Below are positions 32,674 to 49,203 of a stretch of 58,918 nt of DNA, piece by piece; position 1 is the first letter of the stretch; each line of letters starts with the position of its first letter. The translations under genes and the position numbers were made by a program. This DNA comes from a virus. A model generated the notes under the pieces. It saw only the letters and a program-made list of their open reading frames with translations, did not search any database and was not told where the DNA came from. Where the stretch lies: the IMG/VR virus record IMGVR_UViG_3300030450_002092, positions 1-58,918 of that record. One strand, written 5' to 3'.

Positions 32674-32674
32674 G

Positions 32675-33826: not shown

Positions 33827-33827
33827 A

Positions 33828-35063: not shown

Positions 35064-35287
35064 TCTTTTAGTGTTTGTCTGATGTTAATACATTTTTCAT
35101 ATTCTTCTTCCTCTATGAAATAATCTAGCATGTTTAAAATAAAGTCTTTACTATATGGGGCAAAAGGATTATGAGCAAAGTAATAATCTTCCGACTCTAT
35201 AATATCTTCTTCAGCAGCATTCTCAAATAAAACGCTGTAAGAATTTCGCATAGCAATGTGTAATATTTCTTTGTCGCTTTTAGCCAT
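35030..35287 (-). CDS. Hypothetical acidic protein, 85 aa
   Basis: 85 residues, acidic helical protein (FENAAEEDIIESEDYYFAHN, then YFIEEEEYEKCINIRQTLKE). It overlaps the helicase start by 34 bases and the primase/helicase stop by one base. No motif recognised; probably a small partner of the replication enzymes around it. Confidence 0.6.
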   Translation of the reverse strand: MAKSDKEILHIAMRNSYSVLFENAAEEDIIESEDYYFAHNPFAPYSKDFILNMLDYFIEEEEYEKCINIRQTLKEWNSDPTRKKL

Positions 35288-37701: not shown

Positions 37702-37703
37702 AG

Positions 37704-37782
37704 TATGTCGTTTATATGTCGGTTTTATGTCGTTTTTATTTTCATAAGTTGTTGATTGTCAGTTGATATGTCGATTATGTCA
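37704..37782 (+). repeat. Iteron array A (TATGTCG repeats)
   Basis: Three TATGTCG repeats at exact 11-bp steps (37704, 37715, 37726), a 30-bp gap, then two repeats at a 9-bp step (37767, 37776; the last is TATGTCA). The gap contains TAAGTTGTTGATT. The array starts three bases upstream of the primase/helicase start codon. Array B at 49048 has the same geometry. Candidate origin or operator. Confidence 0.75.
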
Positions 37783-37892
37783 TATATTTACCCGCTTATA
37801 AAAAAAAGAAAAATAAATATAATATAAAATTTTATTACTCTTATATGTTTTGGTTAAAATTAACATATCGACACACAAAAAAACATAAAAAA

Positions 37893-37916
37893 AGAGCCAT
37901 AAGAGACTCTCTTTTT
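37893..37916 (-). terminator. Intrinsic terminator after SSB-like gene
   Basis: On the - strand, stem AGAGTC/GGCTCT (with one G.U pair) closes a TCTTAT loop and is followed by seven T. It separates the SSB-like gene from the primase/helicase gene. Confidence 0.65.
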
Positions 37917-37931
37917 ACGTTAGTTACTCAA

Positions 37932-38222
37932 TTAGAATGGTAGTCCAGAATCTTTAACTGGCGCAGCAGCTACAGGAGATTCTACAGGAGATTCTACAGG
38001 AGATTCAACTTTTTTTTCTTGCTTATCACTAAGTGTTAAACCGAAAAAATGTTCTTCTTTTCCATCTGCATTAGTCCTAGTGTTTACCCAAGCAGCTATT
38101 TCTTTTTGGGTGCCATCAGGCAATGCAACAGAGCCTTTATAATCTGGTTGTTTACTACCTTCTTCTTTGTACTTATTTTTAAATAAGTTCCCTTTATTTG
38201 GGTTGTGTTTGAAATCTGACAT
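37932..38222 (-). CDS. SSB-like single-stranded DNA-binding accessory protein
   Basis: 96 residues. The N-terminal 65 look like a compact OB-type module (KQPDYKGSVALPDGTQKEIA, then AAWVNTR and FFGLTLSD). A disordered linker with the four-residue repeat PVES and an Ala/Pro stretch leads to the C-terminal tip DSGLPF, very close to the SSB tip that binds SSB-interacting proteins. It is directly upstream of the primase/helicase. Likely coats ssDNA or docks replication partners. It is much shorter than cellular SSB, so full SSB activity is not certain. Confidence 0.65.
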   Translation of the reverse strand: MSDFKHNPNKGNLFKNKYKEEGSKQPDYKGSVALPDGTQKEIAAWVNTRTNADGKEEHFFGLTLSDKQEKKVESPVESPVESPVAAAPVKDSGLPF

Positions 38223-38325
38223 TGTTATTTATTTTTATAGTTCGTTCCAAATGATTCATTGTCTCAAAGATTAAATCTTCTTTCTCGACTTTACTATTAA
38301 CGGACATTGGAACTCTAATCCACAT
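38194..38325 (-). CDS. Hypothetical small protein, 43 aa
   Basis: I start this at the ATG at 38325 (MWIRVPMSVNSKVEKEDLIF ...) because it follows the stop of the upstream 50-aa ORF by ten bases; an ATG at 38400 would extend it through that ORF in another frame. It overlaps the SSB-like start by 29 bases. Function unknown. Confidence 0.45.
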   Translation of the reverse strand: MWIRVPMSVNSKVEKEDLIFETMNHLERTIKINNNVRFQTQPK

Positions 38326-38335
38326 AATAGTACCT

Positions 38336-38488
38336 TTAGGCGTTCTCTTCGGAATCTTGTTCCATAAAGACCGCATAAACTTTAACACCTTTAGTTTCAT
38401 TGATTAATTTTTTAGTTACCTTTTGTTTTTTTGTTGTATCCTCTTTTTGATATTTAGGATTAGTTGAATTTAATTTTCTTTTCTTCAT
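38336..38488 (-). CDS. Hypothetical small basic protein, 50 aa
   Basis: 50-codon ORF whose ATG follows the stop of the exonuclease gene directly (TAAATG). The N-terminal 35 residues are basic (MKKRKLNSTNPKYQKEDTTK), and the end is GVKVYAVFMEQDSEENA. The tight spacing supports translation. No family recognised. Confidence 0.5.
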   Translation of the reverse strand: MKKRKLNSTNPKYQKEDTTKKQKVTKKLINETKGVKVYAVFMEQDSEENA

Positions 38489-39220
38489 TTATAAATCTTC
38501 ATTTAAATAAAACTGTTCTATATTTTCCATACTTCCTTCAGCAAAATATTTATTATACATCTTGACTGCTCTTTCTACTTTTTGTTCGCCTCTTTCTAAA
38601 AACTCTGGAGTAGGGTTAAACTTCCCTAACACTTTAGATTCTTTACATATAACATAGAACACTAAAGGTTTTCCGAACAACTCTTGATACAAGTATGCTT
38701 GTGAGTCATAATTATATGAACGTGCTGAAAACTTAAATCGAGAAATGTCAGCAGTACTTTTGATATCAATTACACAATCATCACATACAATGTCTGCCTT
38801 TCCTTTCCACATCAAGCCTTTTATTTCTTTTATCGCTGGCTCTTCAAATTTATTTCCAGTCTTATATATAGGCATAGCAAAGTCAAAGTTTCTTAACATT
38901 GTTTCTTTTAATTGGTCGGCTAATTCTTTTTCTTTTTGTAAAAGCATTACCTCTACTTCTCTCATTTCCACTGTTTCTTTGTATAGCTTTGTATTTCTAC
39001 TACTCGCATCTACAAATTCCCAGTTAGCTATTTTTTGTGGCTCCAAAATAAGTTGATGAAAATATCTTCCAAACAAAAAATTCTTGTTATCTGGCCTATC
39101 TGTTTTAAAGTTTATCGGATTGTAAAGTAAGTCGCTAATATCTGAATTAGATAAATATTTACGACCTACTCCCGAGTAATATTCTTTATCGTTTTTTAGT
39201 TGTTGTATTACTTTTTCCAT
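38489..39220 (-). CDS. RecE/Cas4-type PD-(D/E)XK exonuclease
   Basis: 243 residues matching the phage exonuclease family with a PD-(D/E)XK core: GRYFHQLILEP (51-61), Asp143 in KGKADIV, DIKST (152-156) giving D-x-K, and the helical YDSQAYLYQE (171-180). It resects double-stranded ends to make 3' overhangs for the annealing protein encoded just upstream; the two genes overlap by 35 bases. Together they form a two-component recombination system used for concatemer formation or repair. Confidence 0.85.
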   Translation of the reverse strand: MEKVIQQLKNDKEYYSGVGRKYLSNSDISDLLYNPINFKTDRPDNKNFLFGRYFHQLILEPQKIANWEFVDASSRNTKLYKETVEMREVEVMLLQKEKELADQLKETMLRNFDFAMPIYKTGNKFEEPAIKEIKGLMWKGKADIVCDDCVIDIKSTADISRFKFSARSYNYDSQAYLYQELFGKPLVFYVICKESKVLGKFNPTPEFLERGEQKVERAVKMYNKYFAEGSMENIEQFYLNEDL

Positions 39221-39746
39221 TTGTTATTGCGTTTGTTATTGTTTGTTTTATTTCTTCAGTTATATTGTAGTTGTTGTCTTTTAAGAAAGCAACAATATGT
39301 TTCATATTTTTATCTTTCTTTGGTAAAGCCGCCACCCATTTTAAAAAAGCCTCGACATCTACATCTTGCACGGTAATAGTGGTTTCTACTTTCTTATTAT
39401 TTAATTTATAGTTAGCAGTTTCTTCGTAGCTTGCTACTCCACTATCTATACCAATCCCAAAACACCCTAATGCTCTACCCCATGCGCTTGTTTCTGCATT
39501 CTCTACGTAACTTCCTTTATTAATAAAGTTAGATGCTGCCTCTTCAAAAGCTGTACCCGTAGCCACTGTGAAACCAGATTCTTTTTCTATAATAGCTGCT
39601 TGAACTAATATCGTTGTACTTGTTTTTTCTAGTACAGTAGTAACCATACCATACTTGTGTTGGTAAGTTTCTCTGAAATGTTTTAATCGGTCGTGAACCA
39701 TTACATAGTCCTTCCCTTGAATATTTACTGTTTTTAATTTTGACAT
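39186..39746 (-). CDS. Erf-like single-strand annealing protein
   Basis: 186 residues with the Erf/Rad52-superfamily motif VENAETSAWGRALGCFGIG (81-99) after a beta region (VTTVLEKTSTTILVQAAIIE). The C-terminal third is helical and Lys/Thr-rich. It anneals complementary single strands exposed by the adjacent exonuclease. It overlaps that gene by 35 bases, strong evidence of co-expression. Probably the main recombinase of the phage, since no RecA-like protein is visible. Confidence 0.85.
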   Translation of the reverse strand: MSKLKTVNIQGKDYVMVHDRLKHFRETYQHKYGMVTTVLEKTSTTILVQAAIIEKESGFTVATGTAFEEAASNFINKGSYVENAETSAWGRALGCFGIGIDSGVASYEETANYKLNNKKVETTITVQDVDVEAFLKWVAALPKKDKNMKHIVAFLKDNNYNITEEIKQTITNAITNGKSNTTTKKR

Positions 39747-39750
39747 AATT

Positions 39751-40158
39751 TTATTTGTTTGATTGATTAAGTTTTTTGTTTATTTTACTATATGAATTCA
39801 TTATCCTTTCTCGTGCTGCCTTTAGATTCATAATATGTTTAGCATTCTTTCGTGTGTTTACTTCTGTTTTTATTTTGTCTTCTATCATTTCGAGTTTTCT
39901 ACGATAGTTAGACAAACATAAGACAAAAACAGCAGACCGCCAACCTTTTTGATAAAAAATTTCATACTCCTCCGTAGTTATTTCTTTATAAAAATCTCCG
40001 CCTAGAGTTGTGTTGTGAATTATAGTATCAAAATTAGTTTTGTTCTGCTCTATTCTGATTCCAGACAAAAGCCGTGCTTCAAATTCTTCCCCGTCTAAGA
40101 CGGCAGAAAATTCGTCTGCCTTTGCTTGATTAAATATTTCTTTTAAAGTGTAACACAT
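39751..40158 (-). CDS. Hypothetical protein, 135 aa
   Basis: 135 residues, soluble. The N-terminal half is mixed (EFEARLLSGIRIEQNKTNFD); the C-terminal half is a long basic helix (RRKLEMIEDKIKTEV, then NAKHIMNLKAARERIMNSYS). It overlaps the upstream DnaA-like gene by 16 bases and lies four bases before the annealing protein. No motif recognised; a DNA-metabolism accessory is plausible. Confidence 0.6.
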   Translation of the reverse strand: MCYTLKEIFNQAKADEFSAVLDGEEFEARLLSGIRIEQNKTNFDTIIHNTTLGGDFYKEITTEEYEIFYQKGWRSAVFVLCLSNYRRKLEMIEDKIKTEVNTRKNAKHIMNLKAARERIMNSYSKINKKLNQSNK

Positions 40159-40445
40159 TCTTGAATTCTGTCCGTGATGGTAATGTAATCCTCATCTTGT
40201 TGTCTTTTCTGTTTGACCACATCTATCCCGTGAAGGATTGAAGAGTGACTTATTTTGTATCCGTTTTTTGACAAGTAATCTTGAATGTAACTTAATCTTA
40301 TTTGTCTTGACATACACCCGAAATATAAAATATGTCGCGCATCTACCACTTTTCTTTCTTTAGTTTTAGTAAAGAGTTTTTCTCTACTAATATCATACAG
40401 TGAGCAAACGTTGTCTGCTAGCTGATTAAATATAGGTTCTTTCAT
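40143..40445 (-). CDS. DnaA domain IV-like DNA-binding protein (copy 2)
   Basis: 100 residues, almost entirely a DnaA domain IV look-alike: VCSLYDISREKLFTKTKERK (13-32), then VVDARHILYFGCM, IRLSYIQDYLSKNGY and the signature-like SHSSILHGIDVVK (66-78). It lacks any ATPase domain. It shares only this fold with copy 1 at 32.9 kb. The spacing of the basic loop and the S-H-S-S-I-L-H motif fits sequence-specific origin recognition. It may bind the iteron arrays or compete with host DnaA; this is inference. Confidence 0.7.
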   Translation of the reverse strand: MKEPIFNQLADNVCSLYDISREKLFTKTKERKVVDARHILYFGCMSRQIRLSYIQDYLSKNGYKISHSSILHGIDVVKQKRQQDEDYITITDRIQECVTL

Positions 40446-40581
40446 TTGAATTTTTTTTAATTATTTCTTCCCACTTCTTTTTTTCTTGGAGAATTTTCTT
40501 TAGTTCTTGTGCGTGAAAGTTTAAGTTGAAAATAATATCATCAACGGTTCTCACTTTTTTTGGTTTGTTTTTTTGGTTCAT
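40426..40581 (-). CDS. Hypothetical basic coiled protein, 51 aa
   Basis: 51-codon ORF (MNQKNKPKKVRTVDDIIFNL ...), ending in a Lys-rich helix (LKKILQEKKKWEEIIKK). Its ATG follows the upstream stop directly and its end overlaps the DnaA-like start by 20 bases. This tight packing supports it as real. Function unknown. Confidence 0.5.
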   Translation of the reverse strand: MNQKNKPKKVRTVDDIIFNLNFHAQELKKILQEKKKWEEIIKKNSNERTYI

Positions 40582-40770
40582 CTATCTTTGTTTAGGTGTT
40601 CTGTTGTAGGTTATGTTAGGGTAATCCCCACTATCTACATTCCATTTAGTAATAACTTGACCTTCTAAATCAATTACTGTATATCCTTGTTTTGCTAATA
40701 ATTTAATAGCGTTGTGTATTTCTTTAACCTCTAGTCGATAGCTGTCAAATATTTCATTGTGTATTGGCAT
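40582..40770 (-). CDS. Hypothetical protein, 62 aa
   Basis: 62 residues from the ATG at 40770 (MPIHNEIFDSYRLEVKEIHN). An upstream ATG at 40818 would place the start inside the structured element at 40798-40880, so I prefer 40770. A helix with NAIKLLAKQGYTVIDLEGQV suggests a compact alpha/beta fold. It is the first gene after the structured element and may be controlled by it. Confidence 0.55.
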   Translation of the reverse strand: MPIHNEIFDSYRLEVKEIHNAIKLLAKQGYTVIDLEGQVITKWNVDSGDYPNITYNRTPKQR

Positions 40771-40797
40771 TTTATTAAATTTAATTGTGTTTAAAAA

Positions 40798-40880
40798 ACA
40801 GAGAGAGAAACCAAACATTTAATATTAAGGTTTCTTAAACCCATAAAGTTTTTGGGATTATTCCCGACTCCTCTCTCTGT
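40798..40880 (-). ncRNA. Branched structured RNA/attenuator candidate
   Basis: A perfect 10-bp closing stem (40798-40807 with 40871-40880) encloses at least two smaller hairpins: GGGA/TCCC (40854-40857/40862-40865) and AAACC/GGTTT (40808-40812/40829-40833). On the - strand the closing stem is followed by a T-run, as in an intrinsic terminator, and the next gene starts about 20 bases further on. It is not a tRNA: no T-arm or D-arm consensus fits. It could be an attenuator, a riboswitch-like leader or an unusually branched terminator. Confidence 0.5.
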
Positions 40881-40936
40881 CAAAACTACATTATGAATGA
40901 GCGGCTAATATAAGAAATGTATAAGGATTGTGCAAA

Positions 40937-41218
40937 TTATTTCTGACTTTTTAATCTTTCAATTTCAAACTCTAGATGGGCAATAGCTTTAGTTAAGCAT
41001 TCTATTCCCCCATCTTCGTGCTTGACTCTTGAACGTAAGCAGTAGGTAACTGCGGTACCCACATTGTAAGAGCAGTTAAAATCTTCAACCACATATCGTG
41101 CTTGATACTTTCCTGCTCTTGTTGTATTTCCTACATAGTAGCTGGGTACTCTGTTATCTTTATCGGTAGTTGATAGGTTTCTATCAGTGTCGTACCAGTA
41201 TGCGCTTTTACCTTCCAT
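40937..41218 (-). CDS. DUF3310-like phage protein
   Basis: 93 residues. The segment FNCSYNVGTAVTYCLRSRVK followed by GGIECLTKAIAHLEFEIERL matches the DUF3310 pattern (an N-x-G-x-A-hhYhhR helix, then a KAhxhLxxxI helix). The family is phage-specific and has been linked to nucleotide metabolism; whether this copy has enzymatic activity cannot be told. It starts two bases after the preceding gene's stop and ends before the structured element. Confidence 0.6.
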   Translation of the reverse strand: MEGKSAYWYDTDRNLSTTDKDNRVPSYYVGNTTRAGKYQARYVVEDFNCSYNVGTAVTYCLRSRVKHEDGGIECLTKAIAHLEFEIERLKSQK

Positions 41219-41219
41219 C

Positions 41220-41618
41220 TTAAAAATTTAGAAACATGTCTTTCGCCATGTCTTCAAAGATGGTTTTTTCTAGCTTTTTTAAATCTAAACTAACCTCTAG
41301 TTCTTTCTGGTAGTTTAAAGCATAATGAGATTCGGGCAGCATTTGAATAATAAATCCGCCCGCATATCTAATAACTTCTTTGGAGTTGGGTAATAGTTTA
41401 AATCCTAAATCCACTACGCTCACATCGTGGTCTCTATATAGGTGTAGATACGTGTTCATAGTCATTATTTGGCCAGTACTTCTAAAAGTAGTTAGGCTGA
41501 TTCTTCCTTTGTCTATTGATTGTTGTAGCTTTTGTATAACTTTTTTACGTGGTGTTTTTTGTGATTTTTCTAACAGTATTTCGGCTGTTAGCATTCTTCT
41601 GGGTTTCTTGAATTTCAT
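41220..41618 (-). CDS. Hypothetical protein, 132 aa
   Basis: 132 residues with a basic N-terminus (MKFKKPRRMLTAEILLEKSQ, then KTPRKKVIQKLQQSID) and a beta-rich middle (VSVVDLGFKLL, GGFIIQMLPE). No membrane segment or known motif. Position at the head of the DUF3310 pair suggests an early accessory protein. Confidence 0.6.
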   Translation of the reverse strand: MKFKKPRRMLTAEILLEKSQKTPRKKVIQKLQQSIDKGRISLTTFRSTGQIMTMNTYLHLYRDHDVSVVDLGFKLLPNSKEVIRYAGGFIIQMLPESHYALNYQKELEVSLDLKKLEKTIFEDMAKDMFLNF

Positions 41619-41656
41619 TTGATTAAGGTTTAATTGTTGTGTAAATATAGTTTAAT

Positions 41657-41866
41657 TTATTGACAAGCTAAAATTTCTGTTCCTTTAAAATACCAATGTC
41701 CATCAATGTTAACTTTGGTGATGGAGGTGATATTAAATTTTTTTCTTCTCTCTTTTCTTTTTAAACTATCTGCTTTATATTTCTTCAGCTGACGCTCTAA
41801 AGATTTGACGCGTTGCTTCAGTATAAGCTTTTCTGTTATTAGTTCTGCTTTTCTATTTAATTCCAT
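41657..41866 (-). CDS. Hypothetical coiled-coil protein, 69 aa
   Basis: 69 residues. The first 43 form a strongly basic coiled coil (ELITEKLILKQRVKSLERQL ...); the rest is a short beta unit (ITKVNIDGHWYFKGTEILA). Function unknown. Its start overlaps the tiny membrane ORF upstream by ten bases. Confidence 0.55.
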   Translation of the reverse strand: MELNRKAELITEKLILKQRVKSLERQLKKYKADSLKRKERRKKFNITSITKVNIDGHWYFKGTEILACQ

Positions 41867-41952
41867 AGCATAAGTATTATTAGTGTGATGACTACTCCCG
41901 CATATGACAAAGCGAGAAACTTCATATTGTTTTCATATTTTTTATTATCCAT
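41857..41952 (-). CDS. Tiny single-pass membrane protein, 31 aa
   Basis: 31-codon ORF: a charged N-terminus (MDNKKYENNMK) followed by one hydrophobic segment (FLALSYAGVVITLIILMLW). It overlaps both neighbours by about ten bases, which favours real translation. Phage early operons often contain such membrane micropeptides, but I cannot assign a target. Confidence 0.45.
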   Translation of the reverse strand: MDNKKYENNMKFLALSYAGVVITLIILMLWN

Positions 41953-42166
41953 TTTTTTTGAGTTTATATTTTGACATATCGTTTTTAATCCCGCGTACAA
42001 ATTTTGCTTTGTACCTCCGCTCCTTTTCCATAAAGTAGGCGACCTTGAGGTTTACTTTTTCTTCCTTACCACTATACCTAAAGTAGTTGTCAAATTCTCT
42101 TACGTTTCTTTTATACTCTTGTTTCAGCCCTTGTTCGTGCAAGAGTTCTAGCGCTACGTGATGCAT
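41945..42166 (-). CDS. Hypothetical basic protein, 73 aa
   Basis: 73 residues, basic and helical (LHEQGLKQEYKRNVREFDNY, then KVAYFMEKERRYKAKFVRGI). Its ATG overlaps the upstream stop by one base. No family recognised; charge suggests nucleic-acid contact. Confidence 0.55.
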   Translation of the reverse strand: MHHVALELLHEQGLKQEYKRNVREFDNYFRYSGKEEKVNLKVAYFMEKERRYKAKFVRGIKNDMSKYKLKKNG

Positions 42167-42393
42167 TATCCTACGCTTATTGTTGAGCGAGTAACATTAC
42201 ATCTATCTACCATATTCCAATAGTGGTCGTAATATTTATCGAACACTTCTTGTGCTTCAGGGGTGTATTCTGTGTGAGTTCCGCAGTCAACGTTTATATC
42301 TGAATCGGTTTTTCCCTCTGCGTAAAAGTCTTTGATTGTTCTATTGCTTGCAAGTGCGCAGCAAAGTTCTATTTGATTGATTTCTATATACAT
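42166..42393 (-). CDS. Hypothetical acidic protein, 75 aa
   Basis: 75 residues, with ELCCALASNRTIKDFYAEGK and an acidic middle (DSDINVDCGTHTEY). It is the first gene behind the strong leftward promoter at 42422-42453, so it should be among the earliest expressed. Small acidic first genes of phage early operons are often host inhibitors, but nothing in the sequence proves that here. Confidence 0.6.
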   Translation of the reverse strand: MYIEINQIELCCALASNRTIKDFYAEGKTDSDINVDCGTHTEYTPEAQEVFDKYYDHYWNMVDRCNVTRSTISVG

Positions 42394-42421
42394 AAGTTTA
42401 GTTTGATTGGTTTATAATAGA

Positions 42422-42453
42422 CAAAGGTACAACAATATTTAGACATAGCCAAA
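42422..42453 (-). promoter_or_regulatory. Leftward early promoter with conserved spacer
   Basis: On the - strand TTTG (42450-42453), 20-bp spacer, then TACCTTTG (42422-42429): both Bacteroidota promoter elements at normal spacing. The spacer contains TATGTCTAAAT, shared with the promoter at 45128-45159. Confidence 0.8.
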
Positions 42454-42472
42454 TTTCATTGTACCTTTTTCA

Positions 42473-42494
42473 GATTGGTCGCTTGCGACTAATC
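42473..42494 (+). repeat. Dispersed palindrome copy 4, over a stop codon
   Basis: TTGGTCG-CTTG-CGACTAA with outer GA/TC pairing. It contains the TAG stop of the gene at 42489-42734. One of six copies of the TTGGTCG-N4-CGACT element. Confidence 0.7.
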
Positions 42495-42734
42495 GTTGTC
42501 TGCTCGTGCTTGCTCCAGTGCCTTGCTGTAAAAATAAGATTCGTGATTGTCGAGAAAGTCCCAGTAAAAATCTGTGATATCTATATTGTTTAGTTCGACA
42601 CTTTGTATCGATAGGTCTTCTTCGGGTGGTTGGTCGTAGTCGTGCGACATATCATCGTAGTAGTATTTATATTCTATTACTATACAATAGTTGTCGCCTT
42701 CCACAACGCAAGTTCCATATTTAGTTATAGGCAT
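42489..42734 (-). CDS. Hypothetical acidic Tyr-rich protein, 81 aa
   Basis: 81 residues, very acidic and aromatic (EYKYYYDDMSHDYDQPPEED, then DITDFYWDFLDNHESYFYSK). It reads like a conserved small phage protein but I cannot name the family. Its TAG stop lies inside one of the dispersed palindromes. An acidic, DNA-mimic-like character is possible, not shown. Confidence 0.6.
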   Translation of the reverse strand: MPITKYGTCVVEGDNYCIVIEYKYYYDDMSHDYDQPPEEDLSIQSVELNNIDITDFYWDFLDNHESYFYSKALEQARADND

Positions 42735-42751
42735 AATTTTAATTTAATTGA

Positions 42752-43003
42752 TTAATAAAATATCCACATCGCAACATAGAATATAAACCATAACATTAAT
42801 AAGAATATTACGTGTATTGCTGTTTGCGTGTAGTTGATTTGGTTGTTGTCTTTAGTTGTTTCTAATTCTTGTAAGTGTCCGACTAGCCTATCTAATCCAC
42901 TGCAAACGCCTTTGTGTTCGGCAGAGGTATGACTATCGTTTACCCACTCCTTATCTTCTTTAATATCTTTTGCGATATTTTTAATTTGTTTTATTGTTAT
43001 CAT
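42752..43003 (-). CDS. C-terminally anchored membrane protein, 83 aa
   Basis: 83 residues. The soluble N-terminal part is helical (KQIKNIAKDIKEDKEWVNDS); the last 24 residues are a strong membrane segment (AIHVIFLLMLWFIFYVAMW). Tail-anchored topology. It follows two tiny genes with spacings of a few bases. Function unknown. Confidence 0.6.
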   Translation of the reverse strand: MITIKQIKNIAKDIKEDKEWVNDSHTSAEHKGVCSGLDRLVGHLQELETTKDNNQINYTQTAIHVIFLLMLWFIFYVAMWIFY

Positions 43004-43005
43004 AG

Positions 43006-43152
43006 TTATTTATTTTTTGTGATTAATTCTTTTGCTTTTTCTATTGCCTTAAACATTTGTTTATGGTGGTCGCAAATATTTTCTTTGCCCACAATTTCTT
43101 CAATATACCAAGCTGTTTCGTTTAATGTATTTATAATTTCATTTGCTTTCAT
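43006..43152 (-). CDS. Hypothetical small helical protein, 48 aa
   Basis: 48-codon ATG ORF (MKANEIINTLNETAWYIEEI ...) ending in a Lys-rich helix, two bases before the start of the membrane protein gene. Helical and amphipathic, no known motif. Spacing supports translation. Confidence 0.55.
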   Translation of the reverse strand: MKANEIINTLNETAWYIEEIVGKENICDHHKQMFKAIEKAKELITKNK

Positions 43153-43156
43153 AATT

Positions 43157-43327
43157 TTAATATTGTTTTAATGTCGTCCATTCGATATCAAAGTCCGACA
43201 GTTTTTCGTATTCTTCTTTGTCTCTCGTTGAGTTGTTGTCTACTATCCACTTTTCAGGGTCGTTAGTAATATCAACAATGTATGTTCTACCAGTATTTTC
43301 GGTAAATCTTATAATTGCTATTTCCAT
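43157..43327 (-). CDS. Hypothetical small acidic protein, 56 aa
   Basis: 56-codon ATG ORF with alternating strands (MEIAIIRFTENTGRTYIVDI) and an acidic helix (NSTRDKEEYEKLSDFDIEW). Its stop is four bases before the next ATG. A conserved small phage protein by appearance; function unknown. Confidence 0.55.
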   Translation of the reverse strand: MEIAIIRFTENTGRTYIVDITNDPEKWIVDNNSTRDKEEYEKLSDFDIEWTTLKQY

Positions 43328-43356
43328 ATTTATTGTTTTTAATTTATTTGTTATTA

Positions 43357-43881
43357 TTATATTGCGTAATCGTGAATCTCTAAACTGTAAGCATAAGTCT
43401 TGGCCTCATTAATCTTCATTGATAAGTCTATAATTTTATTTCTTTCTGCTCTTATCTCTTTTTTAGATTCTTCAGTGCTTGCACTTTGTTCTTTTGCATT
43501 GTAAAAAATCCAAATGTTGTTGTATAATTTACTTCCTCTATATTTTTGAGAGGCCAATAATCCAGTTTTTCTAATAACTAAATTAACAATGGATTGCTCT
43601 TCTCTTGCAGCTTTTAATCTATCTATCTTGATACCATTGATTTCGTGTTTAAATGAAGCAACATAATCCATAAAATCTGACTCGTTAATCATTTTACCTA
43701 CGTTCAACATTATCTTTTTATTTTCTCCTTCGCAATAAACATAAAGACCTTTTCTTCGTAGATTGTAAAACGTTTTTGTTTCTCTAGTATTTAAATCTTT
43801 TAGTGTTAAGTTGTCGAATAATCCATTTGCAATTATAACTCTGTTAAGTAATCTTTTTTGCGCTGGTGTTAAATTTCTCAT
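43357..43881 (-). CDS. Hypothetical protein, 174 aa, distant relative of 45487-46182
   Basis: 174 residues. It begins MRNLTPAQKRLLNRVIIANG, similar in spacing to the LTGAQRRNLQEVLNS start of the 231-aa protein at 45.5-46.2 kb, so the two may be distant paralogues. The remainder is helical and basic with a Lys/Glu-rich coiled C-terminus. No catalytic motif. It is the gene after the cyclotransferase in the leftward operon, behind a probable terminator. Confidence 0.5.
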   Translation of the reverse strand: MRNLTPAQKRLLNRVIIANGLFDNLTLKDLNTRETKTFYNLRRKGLYVYCEGENKKIMLNVGKMINESDFMDYVASFKHEINGIKIDRLKAAREEQSIVNLVIRKTGLLASQKYRGSKLYNNIWIFYNAKEQSASTEESKKEIRAERNKIIDLSMKINEAKTYAYSLEIHDYAI

Positions 43882-43920
43882 TTGTTATTGTTTTTTTGTT
43901 ATTAATATTTAGTCAATGTA

Positions 43921-43949
43921 AACAAAGCAGAGGTTAGCTAGTAACCTCT
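43921..43949 (-). terminator. Hairpin over the cyclotransferase stop codon
   Basis: 8-bp stem AGAGGTTA/TAACCTCT (43929-43936/43942-43949), 5-base loop. It includes the stop codon of the cyclotransferase gene and is followed on the - strand by CTTTGTTT. Probable weak terminator. Confidence 0.5.
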
Positions 43950-44629
43950 TGCTCTGAATACATTTCATTACACACACTGCAATGATATTTTTGATTGCTG
44001 ATTTCAGTTTCATCATAGTAAACTTCTTCAAAGCAAATGTTACAATACTTTGTATTGTCATCTTCTTTGTCTGCTATTGTTGACAATGAAGAGAATAAAT
44101 CCCTACGCTCGTGGTAACGAGTAGTAGGCTCGTAAGTGTACTGCTCATAGGTTGGCTTATCAGCGTATGAGTATCGCCTTGTACCAAAGCTAAATTTGGG
44201 TGTAATTGGAAAGCTTTTATGATACTTCATATTGGTTGATGAGATACTATCGTATCTATTCCAGTTATTGTTTATAAAGTATATCCAAGCATTTACTATC
44301 GTTCCATTGTTTAGCTTGATAGGTAGTTGCCTTCTGCGATAAAAATTCGGGTGTCCCTCTAGCGAATCAAGAGCAGAAAAGGTGTCATTGTTTACCTTAT
44401 ATACTTCGACTTCTACGTGGTGTCCACTTCCGCGTTTATCTAACAAGTAAGGCAGCCCGCTGATTACTAGCGGGTACCTATCTTTTGTCGTTCCTTTGTT
44501 TACAAATCGTTGGCCATACAATAATCTGTGATTGCCCCCGCCTTTCTTTAAAGTACCATACACTGCTACAACATTGTGCTGTAACACATTGGGTTTAGAA
44601 AACCAAACTCCATTGTGTTTTATCCACAT
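43934..44629 (-). CDS. Gamma-glutamylcyclotransferase-like protein with zinc ribbon
   Basis: 231 residues. The GGCT/AIG2 core starts with VAVYGTLKKGG (22-32), the substrate loop, and has the catalytic-type Glu91 in LDSLEGHPNFYRR. After a linker, a C-terminal zinc ribbon with two CxxC pairs (YCNICF and HCSVCNEMY) follows. The first 15 residues (MWIKHNGVWFSKPNV) actually resemble the end of a class II glutamine amidotransferase, and the frame is open up to that enzyme's TGA stop upstream. GGCT enzymes release 5-oxoproline from gamma-glutamyl amides. The substrate here is unknown; the neighbours suggest peptide amide metabolism. Confidence 0.75.
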   Translation of the reverse strand: MWIKHNGVWFSKPNVLQHNVVAVYGTLKKGGGNHRLLYGQRFVNKGTTKDRYPLVISGLPYLLDKRGSGHHVEVEVYKVNNDTFSALDSLEGHPNFYRRRQLPIKLNNGTIVNAWIYFINNNWNRYDSISSTNMKYHKSFPITPKFSFGTRRYSYADKPTYEQYTYEPTTRYHERRDLFSSLSTIADKEDDNTKYCNICFEEVYYDETEISNQKYHCSVCNEMYSEQEVTS

Positions 44630-44710
44630 TTCTTTGTTGTAGATTTCGTATTGTCGGTTGCGTTTGTTGTAAGTAACAAATCTAGAATCGTGCTGACCTA
44701 GTACTGCTCT

Positions 44711-45064
44711 TCATTGCTGCCTAGCAATACCGCCTAGTTCAATAGCAAGTTGCTTGCTATCACACATATCTTGTGTTCCATACCCGCGTATAGTTCCATT
44801 GTGCATAAGCAGTTCGTTACTATTATTACCGCATATAAATGGGTGGGTGTTTGCTTTGTTAATTTTCCCTTTAGTTGCTAATCTGAAATGAGCGATATAG
44901 GGTCTGTCTGTGTCTAGTACTTTCCATTCTTTAGACTGGTAGTATTCGACTTCATTGGTATCCAGAAAAATTACGCCTAGTCCGTGAGGATTGATGCGTG
45001 AAGAATTTTTAAGTATCTCTGGCGATACTTTTTTGTCTTTCGACTTTACAATAATTATACACAT
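44711..45064 (-). CDS. Class II glutamine amidotransferase-like protein, interrupted by TGA
   Basis: 117 residues with an N-terminal nucleophile hydrolase signature: Cys2 exposed after Met1, RINPHGLGVIFLD, AHFRLATKG (58-66), NTHPF (72-76) and MHNG (87-90). It stops at TGA (44711-44713), yet the same frame stays open and encodes SRFVTYNKRNRQYEIYNKE then WIKHNGVWFSKP, the expected C-terminal hairpin of this family, before entering the cyclotransferase. So the stop removes the enzyme's own C-terminus. Options: recent nonsense mutation, readthrough, or sequencing error. The reaction would be glutamine-dependent amide transfer or hydrolysis. Confidence 0.75.
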   Translation of the reverse strand: MCIIIVKSKDKKVSPEILKNSSRINPHGLGVIFLDTNEVEYYQSKEWKVLDTDRPYIAHFRLATKGKINKANTHPFICGNNSNELLMHNGTIRGYGTQDMCDSKQLAIELGGIARQQ

Positions 45065-45127
45065 AGTTTATTTGTTTGTGAGGTTTGTACTTCTAGTATT
45101 GTGTACGCTGACCTCTGATTATTTAGA

Positions 45128-45159
45128 CAAAGATAAGAAAACATTTAGACATAACCAAA
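45128..45159 (-). promoter_or_regulatory. Leftward promoter for amidotransferase operon
   Basis: On the - strand TTTG (45156-45159), 20-bp spacer with TATGTCTAAAT, then TATCTTTG (45128-45135), followed by TCTAAAT. It lies 64 bases upstream of the amidotransferase start. Near-copy of the promoter at 42422-42453. Confidence 0.8.
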
Positions 45160-45440
45160 CAATTTATGCGAAATTTTATTTCGTGTATTCTAGAAGACCG
45201 CTTCCAAATGTCTTCTTTGAATTTGTGTCTCGTGTTTTTTTTTGTGTCTCGTGTTTTTTTTTACAGCTCCTCCGCTTCCAGCTTCTTTGCTTCTGTATTT
45301 GTAAATCCCCTCTGCTTCTTTGCTTCCGCTCCCCATGCGTCTGCCATGCGTCTGCCATGCGTCTGCCAATCCCGCGGGATTAGCAAAGGAGGTTCGGCAA
45401 AAAAAATTCGGTTCGGTGAAAAAAAATTCGGTTCAAGGCA
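45136..45440. repeat. Repeat-rich, strand-asymmetric intergenic region
   Basis: About 300 bases between a terminator and a promoter with no convincing gene. It holds a 20-bp repeat TTTGTGTCTCGTG-T7 twice (from 45222 and 45241), three tandem 11-bp units ATGCGTCTGCC (45335-45367), a perfect 14-bp palindrome AATCCCGCGGGATT (45368-45381), two GCTTCTTTGCTTC elements, and two A-run/TTCGGTTC repeats. The + strand is pyrimidine-rich over most of it. A 60-codon - strand reading frame (45176-45358) is low-complexity and I do not accept it as a gene. A replication or regulatory site is possible. Confidence 0.55.
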
Positions 45441-45466
45441 AAAAAAAAGACCGCATAAAGCGGCCT
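45441..45466 (-). terminator. Intrinsic terminator (leftward)
   Basis: On the - strand AGGCCGC/GCGGTCT stem (one G.U pair), TTTAT loop and a run of at least eight T. It ends the transcript of the 231-aa gene, just downstream of palindrome copy 5. Confidence 0.85.
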
Positions 45467-45472
45467 CTCTTT

Positions 45473-45490
45473 TTGGTCGTGTACGACTAA
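45473..45490 (+). repeat. Dispersed palindrome copy 5, over a stop codon
   Basis: TTGGTCG-TGTA-CGACTAA. It contains the TAG stop of the gene at 45487-46182. Together with flanking bases it shares 23 identical bases (opposite strand) with the copy inside the terminase gene at 1330-1352. Confidence 0.75.
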
Positions 45491-46182
45491 TTTGTGTGAA
45501 CGTATCTCTGTTCAGTTGGGATTTTTATTTCCTCAACATTTACAAAAACTCTCTTGCTACATTGTGTAAGTCTGTATAAATGTTGATTCGAAATTATGCT
45601 GCTCCCTCTAGCCCTATTGTAGTCATAAAGCGTTTTACCATTTACCCATTTTCCAGAATCAGCATAAAAGGTTAGGGCCATTGCACTTAATCTATAATAT
45701 TTTATGATATAAATTAAAAAATCTCTATCCCTCTCATCGTATCTTATTCTAGCGTGCATAAGGCGGTTAGCTTGTCTAATAGCATTGTCAATTAAGGAGT
45801 AAACCTTTTCCACAGTATGAATTTTAGGCCAGTTTAATTCTAAAAATTCTAAACTAGTGTTAATTCCGAATCGCAATTCGTTGTGTTCTGTAGGTGTGAA
45901 AAGCATTTCTATTCCTTTAAATTGCGCTTTGTTTAGCCTTAAACTTCGGCTCCCCCACGTATCTCTCGCTAAAGGAAACGAAAGTCCTTCTGCGGCCTCT
46001 AAACCATTGTTGCTACGCCTTTGACTATCAGATAAAGTTTTAACAAATTTACATCTTAACTTTTGTTCGTTGTTTGGTGTAATTTGTTGAAAGTAAAATG
46101 AATTCAAAACTTCTTGTAAGTTTCTTCTTTGCGCGCCAGTTAATTTAATACTGGTTAACATTTTGTTTGTGTGTGTACTCAT
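45487..46182 (-). CDS. Hypothetical protein, 231 aa
   Basis: 231 residues; an in-frame ATG at 46161 (MLTSIKLTGAQRRNLQEV) is an alternative start. Central and C-terminal parts are helical and basic (LIDNAIRQANRLMHARIRYD, RDFLIYIIKYYRLSAMAL). The end KRVFVNVEEIKI ... QRYVHTN resembles a degenerate fragment at 48290-48391 and the start resembles the 174-aa protein at 43.4 kb, so it belongs to a small family in this genome. A hammerhead-like element lies just upstream (46207-46257). Function unknown. Confidence 0.6.
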   Translation of the reverse strand: MSTHTNKMLTSIKLTGAQRRNLQEVLNSFYFQQITPNNEQKLRCKFVKTLSDSQRRSNNGLEAAEGLSFPLARDTWGSRSLRLNKAQFKGIEMLFTPTEHNELRFGINTSLEFLELNWPKIHTVEKVYSLIDNAIRQANRLMHARIRYDERDRDFLIYIIKYYRLSAMALTFYADSGKWVNGKTLYDYNRARGSSIISNQHLYRLTQCSKRVFVNVEEIKIPTEQRYVHTN

Positions 46183-46206
46183 AATATTTGTTTTTAAATT
46201 GTTTAA

Positions 46207-46257
46207 TCTGTTTCATCGTTTTCGAATCATCAGGCACGACATTCATCGCACTACAGA
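46207..46257 (-). ncRNA. Hammerhead ribozyme candidate, type III
   Basis: Read on the - strand: stem III UCUGU (46257-46253), A17 at 46252 (predicted cleavage after it), stem I GUGCGA/UCGUGC with loop UGAAUG, core CUGAUGA (46233-46227), stem II UCG/CGA with an AAAA loop, core GAA (46214-46212), then ACAGA (46211-46207) closing stem III with the required A15.1-U16.1 pair. All conserved core bases are present. The unusual points are a U-U mismatch at 10.1/11.1, A rather than C at position 17, and two wobble pairs in stem I. It lies between the amidoligase stop and the next gene. Confidence 0.65.
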
Positions 46258-46289
46258 GGGCAGTTTATACAGCTGCCCAGCTGTGTCAA

Positions 46290-47390
46290 TCATCTTTTGC
46301 GTGCAAAAGAGATTTCCCCTCGTTTCCACAATCGAAACGCTGTCGGTGTTGTTATCGATTTCACAACCGCTAACTCATCGCGGTGCATTCTAGCTGGATT
46401 TTGGTATCTGTTCCAAATAAAAGGCAATACAACGTGGTTAATTTTGTTAGTCATTAACATTTTTCTAAAGTGTTTTGATAACTCAATTAACATTTCAACC
46501 TTGCCCTCATCGTTGTTATACATCGATAATAAAGTTGGTTTTAACTTCTTAATCAATTTTGCATAACTCCCTCTATCATTAACAGCAAAATCAACAATAA
46601 TTTGCATTAATTTATATCTGTTAATCATTTGTTTTACGCTAGTAAATCGGCTCCATAATCTAAACTCCAGTAAACCTAATCTTGATTTCTCAAATATTGG
46701 CTGGTATTTTGTACCTCTAGCAGCGTTGATATGGTCTGATATAGATTCGCTAGTTGTTCTCGCTGTAACGTTATTGCAGCAAAACTGGTTAGCTAATCTC
46801 TTGCGGTTAAGAGCGTAAATGATTGCGTAATAAGGCCTCATCAGTTCATTTAATTCACTACTGGTATGATTTGCGCTAGCAATAGTCATATGGCCGCCAC
46901 ATCTGTAAGACCCATAGTCATTCATTTCATCTGACTGGCTGTAATTTTCATCGATTAAATACTTTGCTTTATGCATTAAATCAAATATTTTATTACGCCA
47001 TTTGCTCATTGGGATAAGTGGTAAAATATTAGTGATGGCTTCAAGTCCGCAGCTCCCATCTCTTTCAATCCCTTTCATTAATTGACAAAAATAATTCAAT
47101 TCGCTACCAGTTAAAACATCTCTAGAAATTCTCGATTTCTCTACTTCCATTCCGATAGTAAATTTTGATTTGTAAACAAACTCAGAAGATTCTAATACTC
47201 TGGTTATGTTGTTTGCTCTTTGTTTCTTTGTCATTCCAGTTAAATCAACCTCAAATTTTGTATTTGCGTAGTCCTCTGGATTCGGGCTACATTGATAAGG
47301 CTGTACAACAATTCTAGAACGCTGATTGCCATTTGAATTGGCCGCCAGCTGCTCTAGTTTGTCATACTTTTTTCCGATTAAATTTTTCAT
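46290..47390 (-). CDS. Amidoligase (COOH-NH2 ligase family)
   Basis: 366 residues with the phage-type amidoligase pattern: TIGMEVE (78-84), ERDGSCGLE (109-117), CGGHMTIAS (164-172) and LEFRLW (241-246), the order seen in the glutamine synthetase/GCS-like amidoligase_2 family. Such enzymes use ATP to join a carboxylate to an amine, forming amide or peptide bonds. In other phages this family is reported beside GGCT and class II amidotransferase genes, as here. The substrate (cell wall peptide, host protein or small metabolite) cannot be told. The 3' end forms an 8-bp inverted repeat TCTTTTGC/GCAAAAGA (46293-46310). Confidence 0.75.
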   Translation of the reverse strand: MKNLIGKKYDKLEQLAANSNGNQRSRIVVQPYQCSPNPEDYANTKFEVDLTGMTKKQRANNITRVLESSEFVYKSKFTIGMEVEKSRISRDVLTGSELNYFCQLMKGIERDGSCGLEAITNILPLIPMSKWRNKIFDLMHKAKYLIDENYSQSDEMNDYGSYRCGGHMTIASANHTSSELNELMRPYYAIIYALNRKRLANQFCCNNVTARTTSESISDHINAARGTKYQPIFEKSRLGLLEFRLWSRFTSVKQMINRYKLMQIIVDFAVNDRGSYAKLIKKLKPTLLSMYNNDEGKVEMLIELSKHFRKMLMTNKINHVVLPFIWNRYQNPARMHRDELAVVKSITTPTAFRLWKRGEISFARKR

Positions 47391-47416
47391 TTGTGTGTGT
47401 GTTTTTAAGTTAAAAA

Positions 47417-48085
47417 TTAGTTTGAATTATTGTTAAAATTATCGTTTCCAGTATCAATTCCAGTTAAAACAGATACTCCCGCCAGTTTTGATGCTAAAAA
47501 TTGCATCGCTTTTACGATTTCATCTTGCTCATTTTTACTGGTTAACTCTAGATTTTCATCGATTCTAACAGCGATATTTCTTTCCGCATCTTGCTCCAGT
47601 TCTTTAATCTTAAAAGCTAGTGTGAAAATAGTCGGGATTGTTGCCGATACTGACTCTTCTGCATTTACTTCAAGTCCTTTGACAAATTTGTTAAAATTGT
47701 CGATAGACCTAACAACATTCTTTCCGCTCTCCTCTTCTTCTGTACATTTCGTTAAAAACTGGTTAACATAATCAGCATTTTGAGTAGTACTCTTATAAGC
47801 TTTCGCCATTCTGTTCATTTGGCTTTGCTTAACATTAAAAAACTTCATTGACATATCTTCAATACTCCAAAGAGCCAAATCGTTAGATTCAAACATTCTT
47901 TTTGTTGCTGGTTTCTTTAGCCATTTTTTGCATTCTGTAGCTAATTTTCCCATTTGAATTTTAGCTATTAATTTGCTGCTTTGGGCAGTTTCTACAGTAT
48001 CAACCAGCGCTGATATTTCTGTAAGTGTGTTCGAAAAGTTGCTATCGTTTAGCATTTCTCTTTCCATTTCTAATAAATTTCTCAT
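47417..48085 (-). CDS. Putative DNA-binding/early regulator protein
   Basis: 222 residues, first gene of the leftward operon. Mostly helical; LATECKKWLKKPATKRMFES and WSIEDMSMKFFNVKQSQMNR (about 73-92) could form a helix-turn-helix. A Glu-rich helix and an Asn-rich tail (NDNFNNNSN) follow. Its place next to the divergent region makes a regulatory role attractive, but no family is recognised. A promoter box lies at 48117-48124. Confidence 0.5.
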   Translation of the reverse strand: MRNLLEMEREMLNDSNFSNTLTEISALVDTVETAQSSKLIAKIQMGKLATECKKWLKKPATKRMFESNDLALWSIEDMSMKFFNVKQSQMNRMAKAYKSTTQNADYVNQFLTKCTEEEESGKNVVRSIDNFNKFVKGLEVNAEESVSATIPTIFTLAFKIKELEQDAERNIAVRIDENLELTSKNEQDEIVKAMQFLASKLAGVSVLTGIDTGNDNFNNNSN

Positions 48086-48116
48086 TGTTTTATATTTTTT
48101 TATGAGATTTTGCGGG

Positions 48117-48124
48117 CAAAATTA
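48117..48124 (-). promoter_or_regulatory. Leftward promoter -7 box TAATTTTG
   Basis: TAATTTTG on the - strand matches TAnnTTTG, 31 bases upstream of the start at 48085. No clear -33 element; moderate support. Confidence 0.5.
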
Positions 48125-48149
48125 CCCTCGAAATTACTCCTAATATTCT

Positions 48150-48182
48150 GCGTTTTTACTCTGAAAAACAGCGTTTTTACTC
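48150..48182. repeat. Direct repeats GCGTTTTTACTC, 21-bp step
   Basis: Two identical 12-mers (48150-48161, 48171-48182) spaced 21 bp start to start, two helical turns, upstream of the leftward promoter box. Operator-like. Confidence 0.6.
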
Positions 48183-48275
48183 GCGTATTGTCTATTAGTT
48201 GTGCATTCATAGTTTAAATATAATCTAATTCAACCAGTTGACCAAAGGATTTTTATATTATTTTTTTGGGCTGAA

Positions 48276-48293
48276 TTGGTCGCATACGACTAA
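48276..48293 (+). repeat. Dispersed palindrome copy 6
   Basis: TTGGTCG-CATA-CGACTAA, extended by flanking AA/TT to AATTGG...CTAATT. Located in the divergent control region. Confidence 0.75.
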
Positions 48294-48391
48294 TTAAAAT
48301 TATATCTGTTGTCCAGAGTGTTAGAAATTTTATACTGGAGCGCGTTCACGTAGTTTTGTTTAGGGTGTTTTAAATGGCCTATAGATGACCT
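48290..48391 (-). pseudogene. Degenerate 3' fragment related to 231-aa gene
   Basis: A start-less - strand frame of about 33 codons ending in TAG inside palindrome copy 6. It reads IGHLKHPKQNYVNALQYKI then SNTLDNRYNFN. The pattern K-x-x-[FY]-V-N-x4-K-I ... R-Y ... N parallels the end of the 231-aa protein (KRVFVNVEEIKI ... QRYVHTN), whose stop also lies in a copy of the palindrome. Likely a duplicated and decayed gene end. Similarity is short. Confidence 0.35.
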
Positions 48392-48689
48392 TTAATCTCT
48401 GTATAAGAGCATTAAAGTTTTAATATTTACCCCGATATTAAAATTAAATAATCATATCCCCCTATCAACCTATTAGATTAACTGGAAAAGCTAGAATAAT
48501 GAGGGCTATTCTCTGATTCTAAAATTGATTTTAACCTGTAAAACCTGATTTGGAAAAAGCTAAAAAAATCGGCAAAAAAGAAAATAAAACAGACCCCCCG
48601 CCAAACAAAAAAATTTTTTTTTCCAGCGCGACCGTAACGCGTATATCGTTAGGAAGCCTACAACCTCTATGTATCTCATATAAATTTTG

Positions 48690-48697
48690 TATCTTTA
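48690..48697 (+). promoter_or_regulatory. Rightward promoter -7 box (TATCTTTA)
   Basis: TATCTTTA, one base off TAnnTTTG, 18 bases before the ATG at 48715. It is the only candidate for the short rightward gene after the divergent region. Confidence 0.5.
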
Positions 48698-48714
48698 CAA
48701 AAAAAATAAAAGTT

Positions 48715-48966
48715 ATGTCTTATCAAAAACCTAACCCGAGTCCTAAAGTGACATTGAAACAGCCTTCAGCTAATAACTATGTTGACGGTTTAGAAATTAG
48801 AAACGGTAGATTAATAAATCTTCGACCGCCATCAATGATGGGCATTGAACAAGCTGCGATGTATAGAAAAGAAATGAAGAAACAATATAAGATAGATTGT
48901 ATTGCAGACGGAATTGAAAGAGCTAAAATGAGAATGGACGGAGATAGAGATATATACGAATACTAA
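48715..48966 (+). CDS. Hypothetical protein, 83 aa
   Basis: 83 residues from the ATG at 48715, chosen over longer frames because a promoter box lies just upstream. N-terminus is polar and Pro-rich (MSYQKPNPSPKVTLKQPSAN); the C-terminus is helical and charged (MYRKEMKKQYKIDCIADGIE, then RAKMRMDGDRD). It is the first rightward gene and ends in an intrinsic terminator, so it forms its own unit. Function unknown. Confidence 0.6.
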   Translation: MSYQKPNPSPKVTLKQPSANNYVDGLEIRNGRLINLRPPSMMGIEQAAMYRKEMKKQYKIDCIADGIERAKMRMDGDRDIYEY

Positions 48967-48998
48967 ACTTTAGTTTGTTTGTTTGTTTGTTGAAAAGA

Positions 48999-49028
48999 GA
49001 GGGTAACATTCTGTTGTCCTCTTTTTTT
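48999..49028 (+). terminator. Intrinsic terminator
   Basis: 10-bp stem (48999-49008/49012-49021, two G.U pairs), 3-base loop, then T7. It is preceded by a GTTT tandem run (48973-48990). Confidence 0.85.
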
Positions 49029-49032
49029 ATGT

Positions 49033-49040
49033 TAACTTTG
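49033..49040 (+). promoter_or_regulatory. Promoter -7 box TAACTTTG upstream of iteron array B
   Basis: Exact TAnnTTTG match directly after the terminator. Transcription would start in or just before iteron array B and reach the SET gene 163 bases later. Confidence 0.65.
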
Positions 49041-49047
49041 AAATACA

Positions 49048-49126
49048 TATGTTGATTTTATGTCGGTATTATGTCGATAATAAATTTGTAAGTTATTGAT
49101 TTATAATACTTATGTCGATTATGTCG
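49048..49126 (+). repeat. Iteron array B (TATGTCG repeats)
   Basis: Repeats at 49048 (TATGTTG), 49059 and 49070 with exact 11-bp steps, a 30-bp gap containing TAAGTTATTGATT, then 49111 and 49120 with a 9-bp step. Same geometry and strand as array A at 37704-37782, about 11.3 kb away. Confidence 0.75.
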
Positions 49127-49203
49127 ATTTGAAAACGATTCTGTATTCAAATATTTTTTAAATAGTGAGTATATAAATATATATATAATAAAGAAAGTAA
49201 AAT

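What the first reader, a model, noticed from the sequence alone, without database searches (positions are those of the whole stretch)
37704..49126. Two identical-geometry iteron arrays 11.3 kb apart
TATGTCG repeats occur as 3 x 11 bp, a 30-bp gap and 2 x 9 bp at 37704-37782 and again at 49048-49126, on the same strand. The gap shares TAAGTT[GA]TTGATT at the same offset. One array abuts the primase/helicase start (transcribed left), the other precedes the SET gene (transcribed right). Because the orientation to the adjacent gene differs, a DNA-binding site is more likely than an RNA leader. Candidates: dual replication origins or operators, perhaps read by the DnaA domain IV-like proteins.
Basis: partly seen in the sequence, partly recalled or inferred. 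Interest (0 to 1): 0.8.

Follow-up and report, generated by a model that had tools for sequence, protein, structure and literature searches.

The report
Twin iteron origins in a phage
This Bacteroidota-type phage genome carries two same-oriented copies of what looks like a complete DNA-replication start site (short repeats, a DNA-bending site and an easily melted stretch), probably recognised by the phage's own primase-helicase, and the pair recurs in many relatives, so a two-origin phage replication system can now be tested.

Summary
Both arrays (37704-37782, 49048-49126) have the same spacing and are the only high-scoring instances in the window. The shared 'gap' motif is an exact IHF consensus site, WATCAANNNNTTR. 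The AT tracts beside the arrays are the two least stable 50- and 70-bp segments of the window. Beyond each lies an inverted iteron, again exactly 11,344 bp apart, after a 78-bp spacer.

Layout of each unit: inverted iteron - AT tract - iteron pair - IHF site - iteron triple. It recurs in most of the relatives examined, always on the primase strand, next to the primase start and/or (mostly) 8-11 kb upstream. The repeat letters drift between phages. In relatives the second unit sits before groEL; the SET gene is a local insertion.

Best explanation: duplicated replication origins recognised by the phage's D5/SaPI5-like primase-helicase, with host IHF/HU bending the DNA. Repeat letters track the primase's predicted winged-helix C-terminus better than any other conserved protein tested. 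The two DnaA-like proteins are genuine DnaA domain-IV folds but track the repeats poorly, so they are less likely readers and may be accessory. Origin activity and binding are inferred, not shown.

The parts
37694..37700 (-). Fourth iteron of unit 1 (TGACACA), overlapping the primase start codon
   Evidence: TGACA conserved at the primase start in 11 aligned relatives; coordinates checked
37704..37732 (+). Unit 1 iteron triple, TATGTCG at 37704, 37715 and 37726 (11-bp phase)
37745..37757 (-). Unit 1 IHF-type site AATCAACAACTTA (9/9 to WATCAANNNNTTR)
   Evidence: consensus from PMC5742627
37767..37782 (+). Unit 1 iteron pair TATGTCG/TATGTCA (9-bp phase)
37790..37860 (.). Unit 1 AT-rich tract, candidate DNA-unwinding element
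   Evidence: least stable 50-bp segment of the window (starts 37796), second least stable at 70 bp
37861..37875 (-). Unit 1 inverted iterons TAACATA and CGACACA (read on the + strand) beyond the AT tract
49028..49034 (+). Extra iteron of unit 2 (TATGTTA) beyond the triple
   Evidence: (ACATAAAAAA at this position in relatives)
49048..49076 (+). Unit 2 iteron triple TATGTTG, TATGTCG, TATGTCG (11-bp phase)
49089..49101 (-). Unit 2 IHF-type site AATCAATAACTTA (9/9)
49111..49126 (+). Unit 2 iteron pair TATGTCG/TATGTCG (9-bp phase)
49139..49200 (.). Unit 2 AT-rich tract, candidate DNA-unwinding element
   Evidence: least stable 70- and 100-bp segment of the window, second least stable at 50 bp (starts 49144)
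49205..49211 (-). Unit 2 inverted iteron TGACATA (read on the + strand), at the same 11,344-bp offset as in unit 1; overlaps the SET start codon
35287..37701 (-). Primase-helicase (VirE/D5 type), proposed initiator; residues ~709-791 predicted winged helix
   Evidence: co-variation
40143..40445 (-). DnaAa: stand-alone DnaA domain-IV-like protein, 100 aa
32907..33302 (-). DnaAb: DnaA domain-IV-like protein with a C-terminal extension, 131 aa

Best explanation
The two arrays are the core of two same-oriented replication origins. Each unit reads, in the primase direction: inverted iteron(s) - about 78 bp of AT-rich, easily melted DNA - iteron pair (9-bp phase) - one IHF-type bend site - iteron triple (11-bp phase) - one outlying iteron. 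Proposed mechanism: the phage's D5/SaPI5-like primase-helicase binds the heptamers through its C-terminal winged helix. Host IHF or HU (none was found in the window) bends the gap so that the pair and triple meet. The neighbouring AT tract then melts and the AAA+ helicase loads and primes. Unit 1, whose last iteron covers the primase start codon, may also auto-regulate the primase. Shown: sequence, geometry, IHF consensus, stability minima, conservation of position and orientation, structural class of the primase (by prediction). Inferred: binding, bending, melting, origin firing, and any role of the DnaA-like proteins.
For: Geometry far beyond chance. Exact IHF site inside both arrays at the same offset. 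AT tracts rank 1 and 2 in instability in the window; in relatives they are the least stable segment of the locus in 25 of 43 distinct arrays and in the top three in 34. Inverted iteron in 26 of 44 arrays against 7.7 expected. Layout recurs in most DnaAa-bearing loci examined, and every array found in a locus with a primase is on its strand, at its start or 8.3-11.3 kb upstream (outliers L023 at 7.7 kb and L177 at 1.9 kb). The primase model matches the SaPI5 primase-helicase, ASFV PrimPol and poxvirus D5/E5, and its C-terminus is predicted as a winged helix at pLDDT 74-91. SaPI Rep and SCCmec Cch2 use their C-termini to bind iterons (PMC7581432). Of 64 windows from 7 conserved proteins, the three best trackers of iteron type are primase 675-775 (partial Mantel 0.44-0.49, permutation p 0.002 for the top window). 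The primase C-terminus gives 0.57 (bootstrap 0.31-0.71) against 0.25 for DnaAa, and 0.61 against 0.21 for DnaAb on the same phages. Using only the distant array 2, primase windows still lead. Elements L208, L199 and L202 have a different repeat (AGTGTTG/CAACACT type) at matching positions before the same primase; L208 and L202 have no DnaA-like gene in 21-22 kb. No DnaB, integrase or resolvase match.
Against: No binding, melting or replication data. Co-variation is confounded by shared ancestry, and the array-2-only test (20 phages) ranks primase 375-450 first, with 725-775 only third. Some relatives have no detectable unit at one of the two places, so two origins are not obligatory. GC skew simply follows gene direction and locates no origin. 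The SaPI origin lies downstream of its rep gene, not upstream. Iteron position before the primase start also fits auto-regulation alone.
Confidence: 0.66

Rival explanations
1. Dual origins as above, but read mainly by the phage's DnaA domain IV-like proteins, in the manner of DnaA boxes at oriC; the primase-helicase is recruited afterwards.
For: Two domain-IV homologues accompany the arrays in most relatives. The order AT tract - boxes - IHF - tandem boxes matches E. coli oriC, whose low-affinity boxes are 9-mers separated by 2 bp, i.e. 11-bp phase. The family iteron TTATGTYR shares the TTAT half of the DnaA box.
Against: DnaA-like sequences track iteron type weakly and their recognition helices least (0.04-0.16). 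No DnaAb was detected in several array-bearing phages. Comparable repeats occur beside the primase in elements with no DnaA-like gene in view. The TTAT match is short and could be chance.
Confidence: 0.16
2. Operators only: a phage repressor or activator, helped by IHF, controls early genes at the two sites, as Mu repressor does at its IHF-containing operator (Mu from memory).
For: Unit 1 abuts and overlaps the primase start. Unit 2 lies in an intergenic region before SET/groEL. No replication assay exists.
Against: groEL has its own Bacteroidota-type -7 element TATATTTG at 49596, far from unit 2, and unit 2 keeps its orientation to the primase rather than to groEL. Stability minima and the outer inverted iteron are origin-like rather than operator-like.
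Confidence: 0.13
3. Recombination (attP-like arm sites) or partition (parC-like iterons) sites.
For: Short direct repeats around an IHF site resemble attP arms; 11-bp repeats occur in some centromeres (both from memory).
Against: No tyrosine or serine recombinase and no ParA-type match in the window. The StbA/ParM search had no positive control, so that family is not excluded.
Confidence: 0.03
4. RNA leader elements transcribed in the array direction.
For: A TATATTTA stretch precedes the pair in both units in the same orientation, so one transcript direction would fit both.
Against: The heptamers are direct repeats around an IHF site, a DNA feature; unit 2 would make RNA antisense to g48.
Confidence: 0.02

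Closest known systems
Staphylococcal pathogenicity island (SaPI) and SCCmec origins with Rep/Cch2 initiator helicases
   Same: Self-encoded initiator helicase; short iterons beside its gene; C-terminal DNA-binding domain reads the iterons there (PMC7581432); the predicted fold here matches SaPI5 primase-helicase 7om0/7ola.
   Different: Here the unit lies before the gene start, is duplicated 8-11 kb away, includes an IHF consensus site between iteron groups, and accompanies two DnaA domain-IV proteins, in phages without a detected integrase.
E. coli oriC (DnaA/IHF origin)
   Same: Order of AT-rich unwinding element, boxes, one IHF site, then tandem boxes in one orientation at 11-bp phase (PMC5742627, PMC6727663).
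   Different: Iterons are not canonical DnaA boxes and change between phages; no full-length DnaA seen, only domain-IV-like proteins; a primase-helicase would replace DnaA's AAA+ domain and DnaB.
Iteron plasmid origins helped by IHF (pSC101, R6K)
   Same: Iterons, AT-rich region and IHF assistance (PMC4980987).
   Different: Plasmid iterons are typically 17-22 bp and read by Rep winged helices that recruit the host DnaB helicase; here heptamers and a helicase-linked candidate reader.

Membership tests
SaPI/SCCmec-type origin with D5-like initiator | Initiator is a D5-type (SF3/AAA+) primase-helicase | tested here: met
   BT4734-like N-terminal domain, DUF5906 and a weak PriCT-1 match; Foldseek matches to SaPI5 primase-helicase, ASFV PrimPol and D5/E5, although the helicase core is poorly modelled
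SaPI/SCCmec-type origin with D5-like initiator | Iterons adjacent to the initiator gene | tested here: met
   unit 1 abuts the primase start (SaPI origins lie downstream of rep)
SaPI/SCCmec-type origin with D5-like initiator | C-terminal domain of the initiator binds the iterons | tested here: inconclusive
   Predicted winged helix and best co-variation; no binding assay
oriC-type (DnaA) origin | Canonical DnaA boxes TTATNCACA | tested here: not met
   family iteron TTATGTYR shares only the 5' half in that orientation
oriC-type (DnaA) origin | Unwinding element plus IHF site plus tandem same-orientation boxes | tested here: met
   (layout only; melting and IHF binding not assayed)
DnaA domain IV fold (window 40143-40445 and 32907-33302) | Sequence and fold match to the DnaA DNA-binding domain | tested here: met
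   Profile hits 1l8q E=1.5e-6 and 1j1v E=8.7e-16; AF2 model of DnaAa TM 0.75-0.83 to 1j1v/3pvp
Replication origin (any) | DNA synthesis starts there | not testable with these tools
   No reads or replication data held; GC skew uninformative
Phage attP | Cognate integrase | tested here: not met
   no PF00589 or PF00239 match in the window, with positive controls; the record may be incomplete

The most novel reading that the evidence does not exclude
A large group of aquatic Bacteroidota-type podoviruses replicates from a pair of near-identical, co-oriented oriC-like origins about 10 kb apart, driven by a D5-type primase-helicase together with two stand-alone DnaA domain-IV proteins: a hybrid of the chromosomal and the mobile-element initiation schemes, with origin and initiator co-evolving.
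Probability: 0.3. Interest if true: 0.78.

Novelty: new variant of a known kind. Interest (0 to 1): 0.64.

Why it matters
It gives a predicted origin, initiator and bending factor for an abundant, largely uncultured phage group (351 stretches of IMG/VR encode a DnaAa relative) and a natural series of changing iteron letters with which to work out how D5-type primase-helicases, shared with SaPIs, poxviruses and ASFV, choose DNA. The duplicated, co-oriented layout raises testable questions about why a phage keeps two such sites and what DnaA-like DNA-binding domains do without the rest of DnaA.

Tried and rejected
DnaA-box reading of the iterons: one array-2 iteron reads TTATCGACA (8/9 to a DnaA box) in one orientation and the family reads TTATGTYR in the other; too short to decide, kept as a lead. 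Column-by-column covariation of DnaA recognition helices with iterons: no clear column. An early by-eye idea that the DnaAb Asp/Asn position tracks one iteron position had an exception (L073) and was dropped. GC skew for origin location: follows coding strand only. RNA-leader reading: not supported. attP and ParA-type partition: no proteins found; the StbA search had no working control. Cultured Elemo phage NC_055854 (40% identical primase N-terminus) has no array by the same scan. Most distant genome contigs primases (e.g. L200, L203, L216) show no repeat enrichment before the gene, so the arrangement is not universal.
Full report
What was checked. The two arrays are present as described: TATGTCG-type heptamers in a triple at 11-bp phase, a gap (34 bp from the last triple heptamer to the pair; 30 bp if the repeat is counted as 11 bp), and a pair at 9-bp phase, at 37704-37782 and 49048-49126, offset 11,344 bp. 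Each array contains one single-base variant. A scan for any heptamer repeated with this geometry finds these two at 34/35 and nothing else at 29 or more apart from shifted registers of the same arrays; simulated windows peak at 25-29.

What the finding missed. On the strand read in the primase direction, the shared gap motif is AATCAA(C/T)AACTTA, an exact match to the IHF consensus (A/T)ATCAAnnnnTT(A/G) given in PMC5742627. The window has eight exact matches on both strands; the only two on the minus strand lie in the arrays. The AT-rich tracts next to the pairs are the two least stable 50- and 70-bp segments of the 58.9-kb window. Beyond them an inverted iteron lies at 37861 and 49205, again 11,344 bp apart, leaving a 78-bp spacer in both units. 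A further iteron overlaps the primase start codon in unit 1.

Relatives. A search with the primase found 68 loci in IMG/VR. Those closest to the window keep the pair-IHF-triple layout immediately before the primase; some more distant ones lack it there. The second unit lies between the gene called g48 here (48550-48966) and groEL. The SET gene of this window was found only in L116 (94% identical) and L091 (46%) among the loci held, so its neighbourhood to unit 2 is local. A search with DnaAa reached 351 matches, of which 80 loci were kept; most carry a detectable unit scoring 37-43 against a simulated maximum of 36. All units found in loci with a primase lie on the primase strand, at its start or, with two exceptions, 8.3-11.3 kb upstream. 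The neighbouring AT tract is the least stable segment of its locus in 25 of 43 distinct arrays and in the top three in 34. An inverted iteron is found in 26 of 44 against 7.7 expected.

Who reads it. Repeat letters drift: CGACATA, CAACATA, TAACATA, GTCACAAA, AGCATAA and others. Between 34 phages, after allowing for overall protein distance, the three best trackers of iteron type among 64 windows of seven conserved proteins are primase 675-725, 700-750 and 725-775. The primase C-terminus has partial correlation 0.57 (bootstrap 0.31-0.71); DnaAa 0.25; DnaAb 0.21 against 0.61 for the primase C-terminus on the same phages. With unit 2 alone, which is mostly 8-11 kb from the primase gene, primase windows still lead, though residues 375-450 rank above 725-775, and DnaA windows fall in the lower half. 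The AF2 model gives the C-terminus a winged-helix topology with good confidence while the AAA+ core is poorly modelled. Foldseek matches ASFV PrimPol, poxvirus D5/E5 and the SaPI5 primase-helicase. In SaPIs and SCCmec the C-terminus of such initiators binds iterons (PMC7581432). Three distant elements in Bacteroidota-assigned contigs (L199, L202, L208) have AGTGTTG/CAACACT-type repeats at closely matching positions before the same primase; L202 and L208 have no DnaA-like gene in the 21-22 kb held (L199 is a 7.3-kb contig).

The DnaA-like proteins. Both are genuine DnaA domain-IV homologues: profile matches to 1l8q (1.5e-6) and 1j1v (8.7e-16), and DnaAa's model superposes on 3pvp and 1j1v at TM 0.75-0.83. 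The window gave no DnaB helicase, DNA polymerase A or B, HU/IHF, integrase or resolvase match. The proteins may bind other sites, assist loading, or interfere with host DnaA; nothing here decides.

Interpretation. The simplest reading is a pair of replication origins of SaPI type with an oriC-like plan, read by the primase-helicase and bent by a host IHF/HU protein. Binding, bending, melting and initiation are inferences. Why two copies are kept in one orientation, with one unit degenerate in some relatives, is unexplained. Operator function at unit 1 may coexist with origin function.

Limits. Co-variation is confounded by ancestry and the sample is modest; IMG/VR records are mostly fragments; host identity rests on protein relatives in Bacteroidota-assigned bins and promoter style, and several bins are evidently mixed. 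The literature searches covered only the held open-access library and found no description of this arrangement in phages, which is weak evidence of novelty.

Noticed in passing
window 49204-49590; L116:743-1126; L091:8498-8878: A SET-domain gene sits between unit 2 and groEL here and in L116; it was not found in most relatives. Its start codon overlaps the inverted iteron of unit 2.
   Followed up: partly
window 49627-51258, 51236-51502, 226-792: The phage encodes GroEL and two GroES-like proteins.
   Followed up: no
window 43934-47390: A gamma-glutamyl cyclotransferase, a short glutamine aminotransferase-like ORF and an unassigned 366-aa protein lie together, which recalls amidoligase gene clusters (from memory, untested).
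   Followed up: no
L208 -217 to -55 before the primase, and the same region of L199 and L202: AGTGTTG/CAACACT repeats with an inverted pair, a spacer and a direct pair precede VirE-type primases in Tenacibaculum-, Polaribacter- and Flavobacteriaceae-assigned contigs.
   Followed up: partly
window 32907-33302 and relatives: DnaAb carries a leucine-rich C-terminal extension of variable length, possibly a dimerisation segment.
   Followed up: no
window 31585-48085: GC and AT skew invert over the leftward-transcribed block, following coding direction.
   Followed up: no
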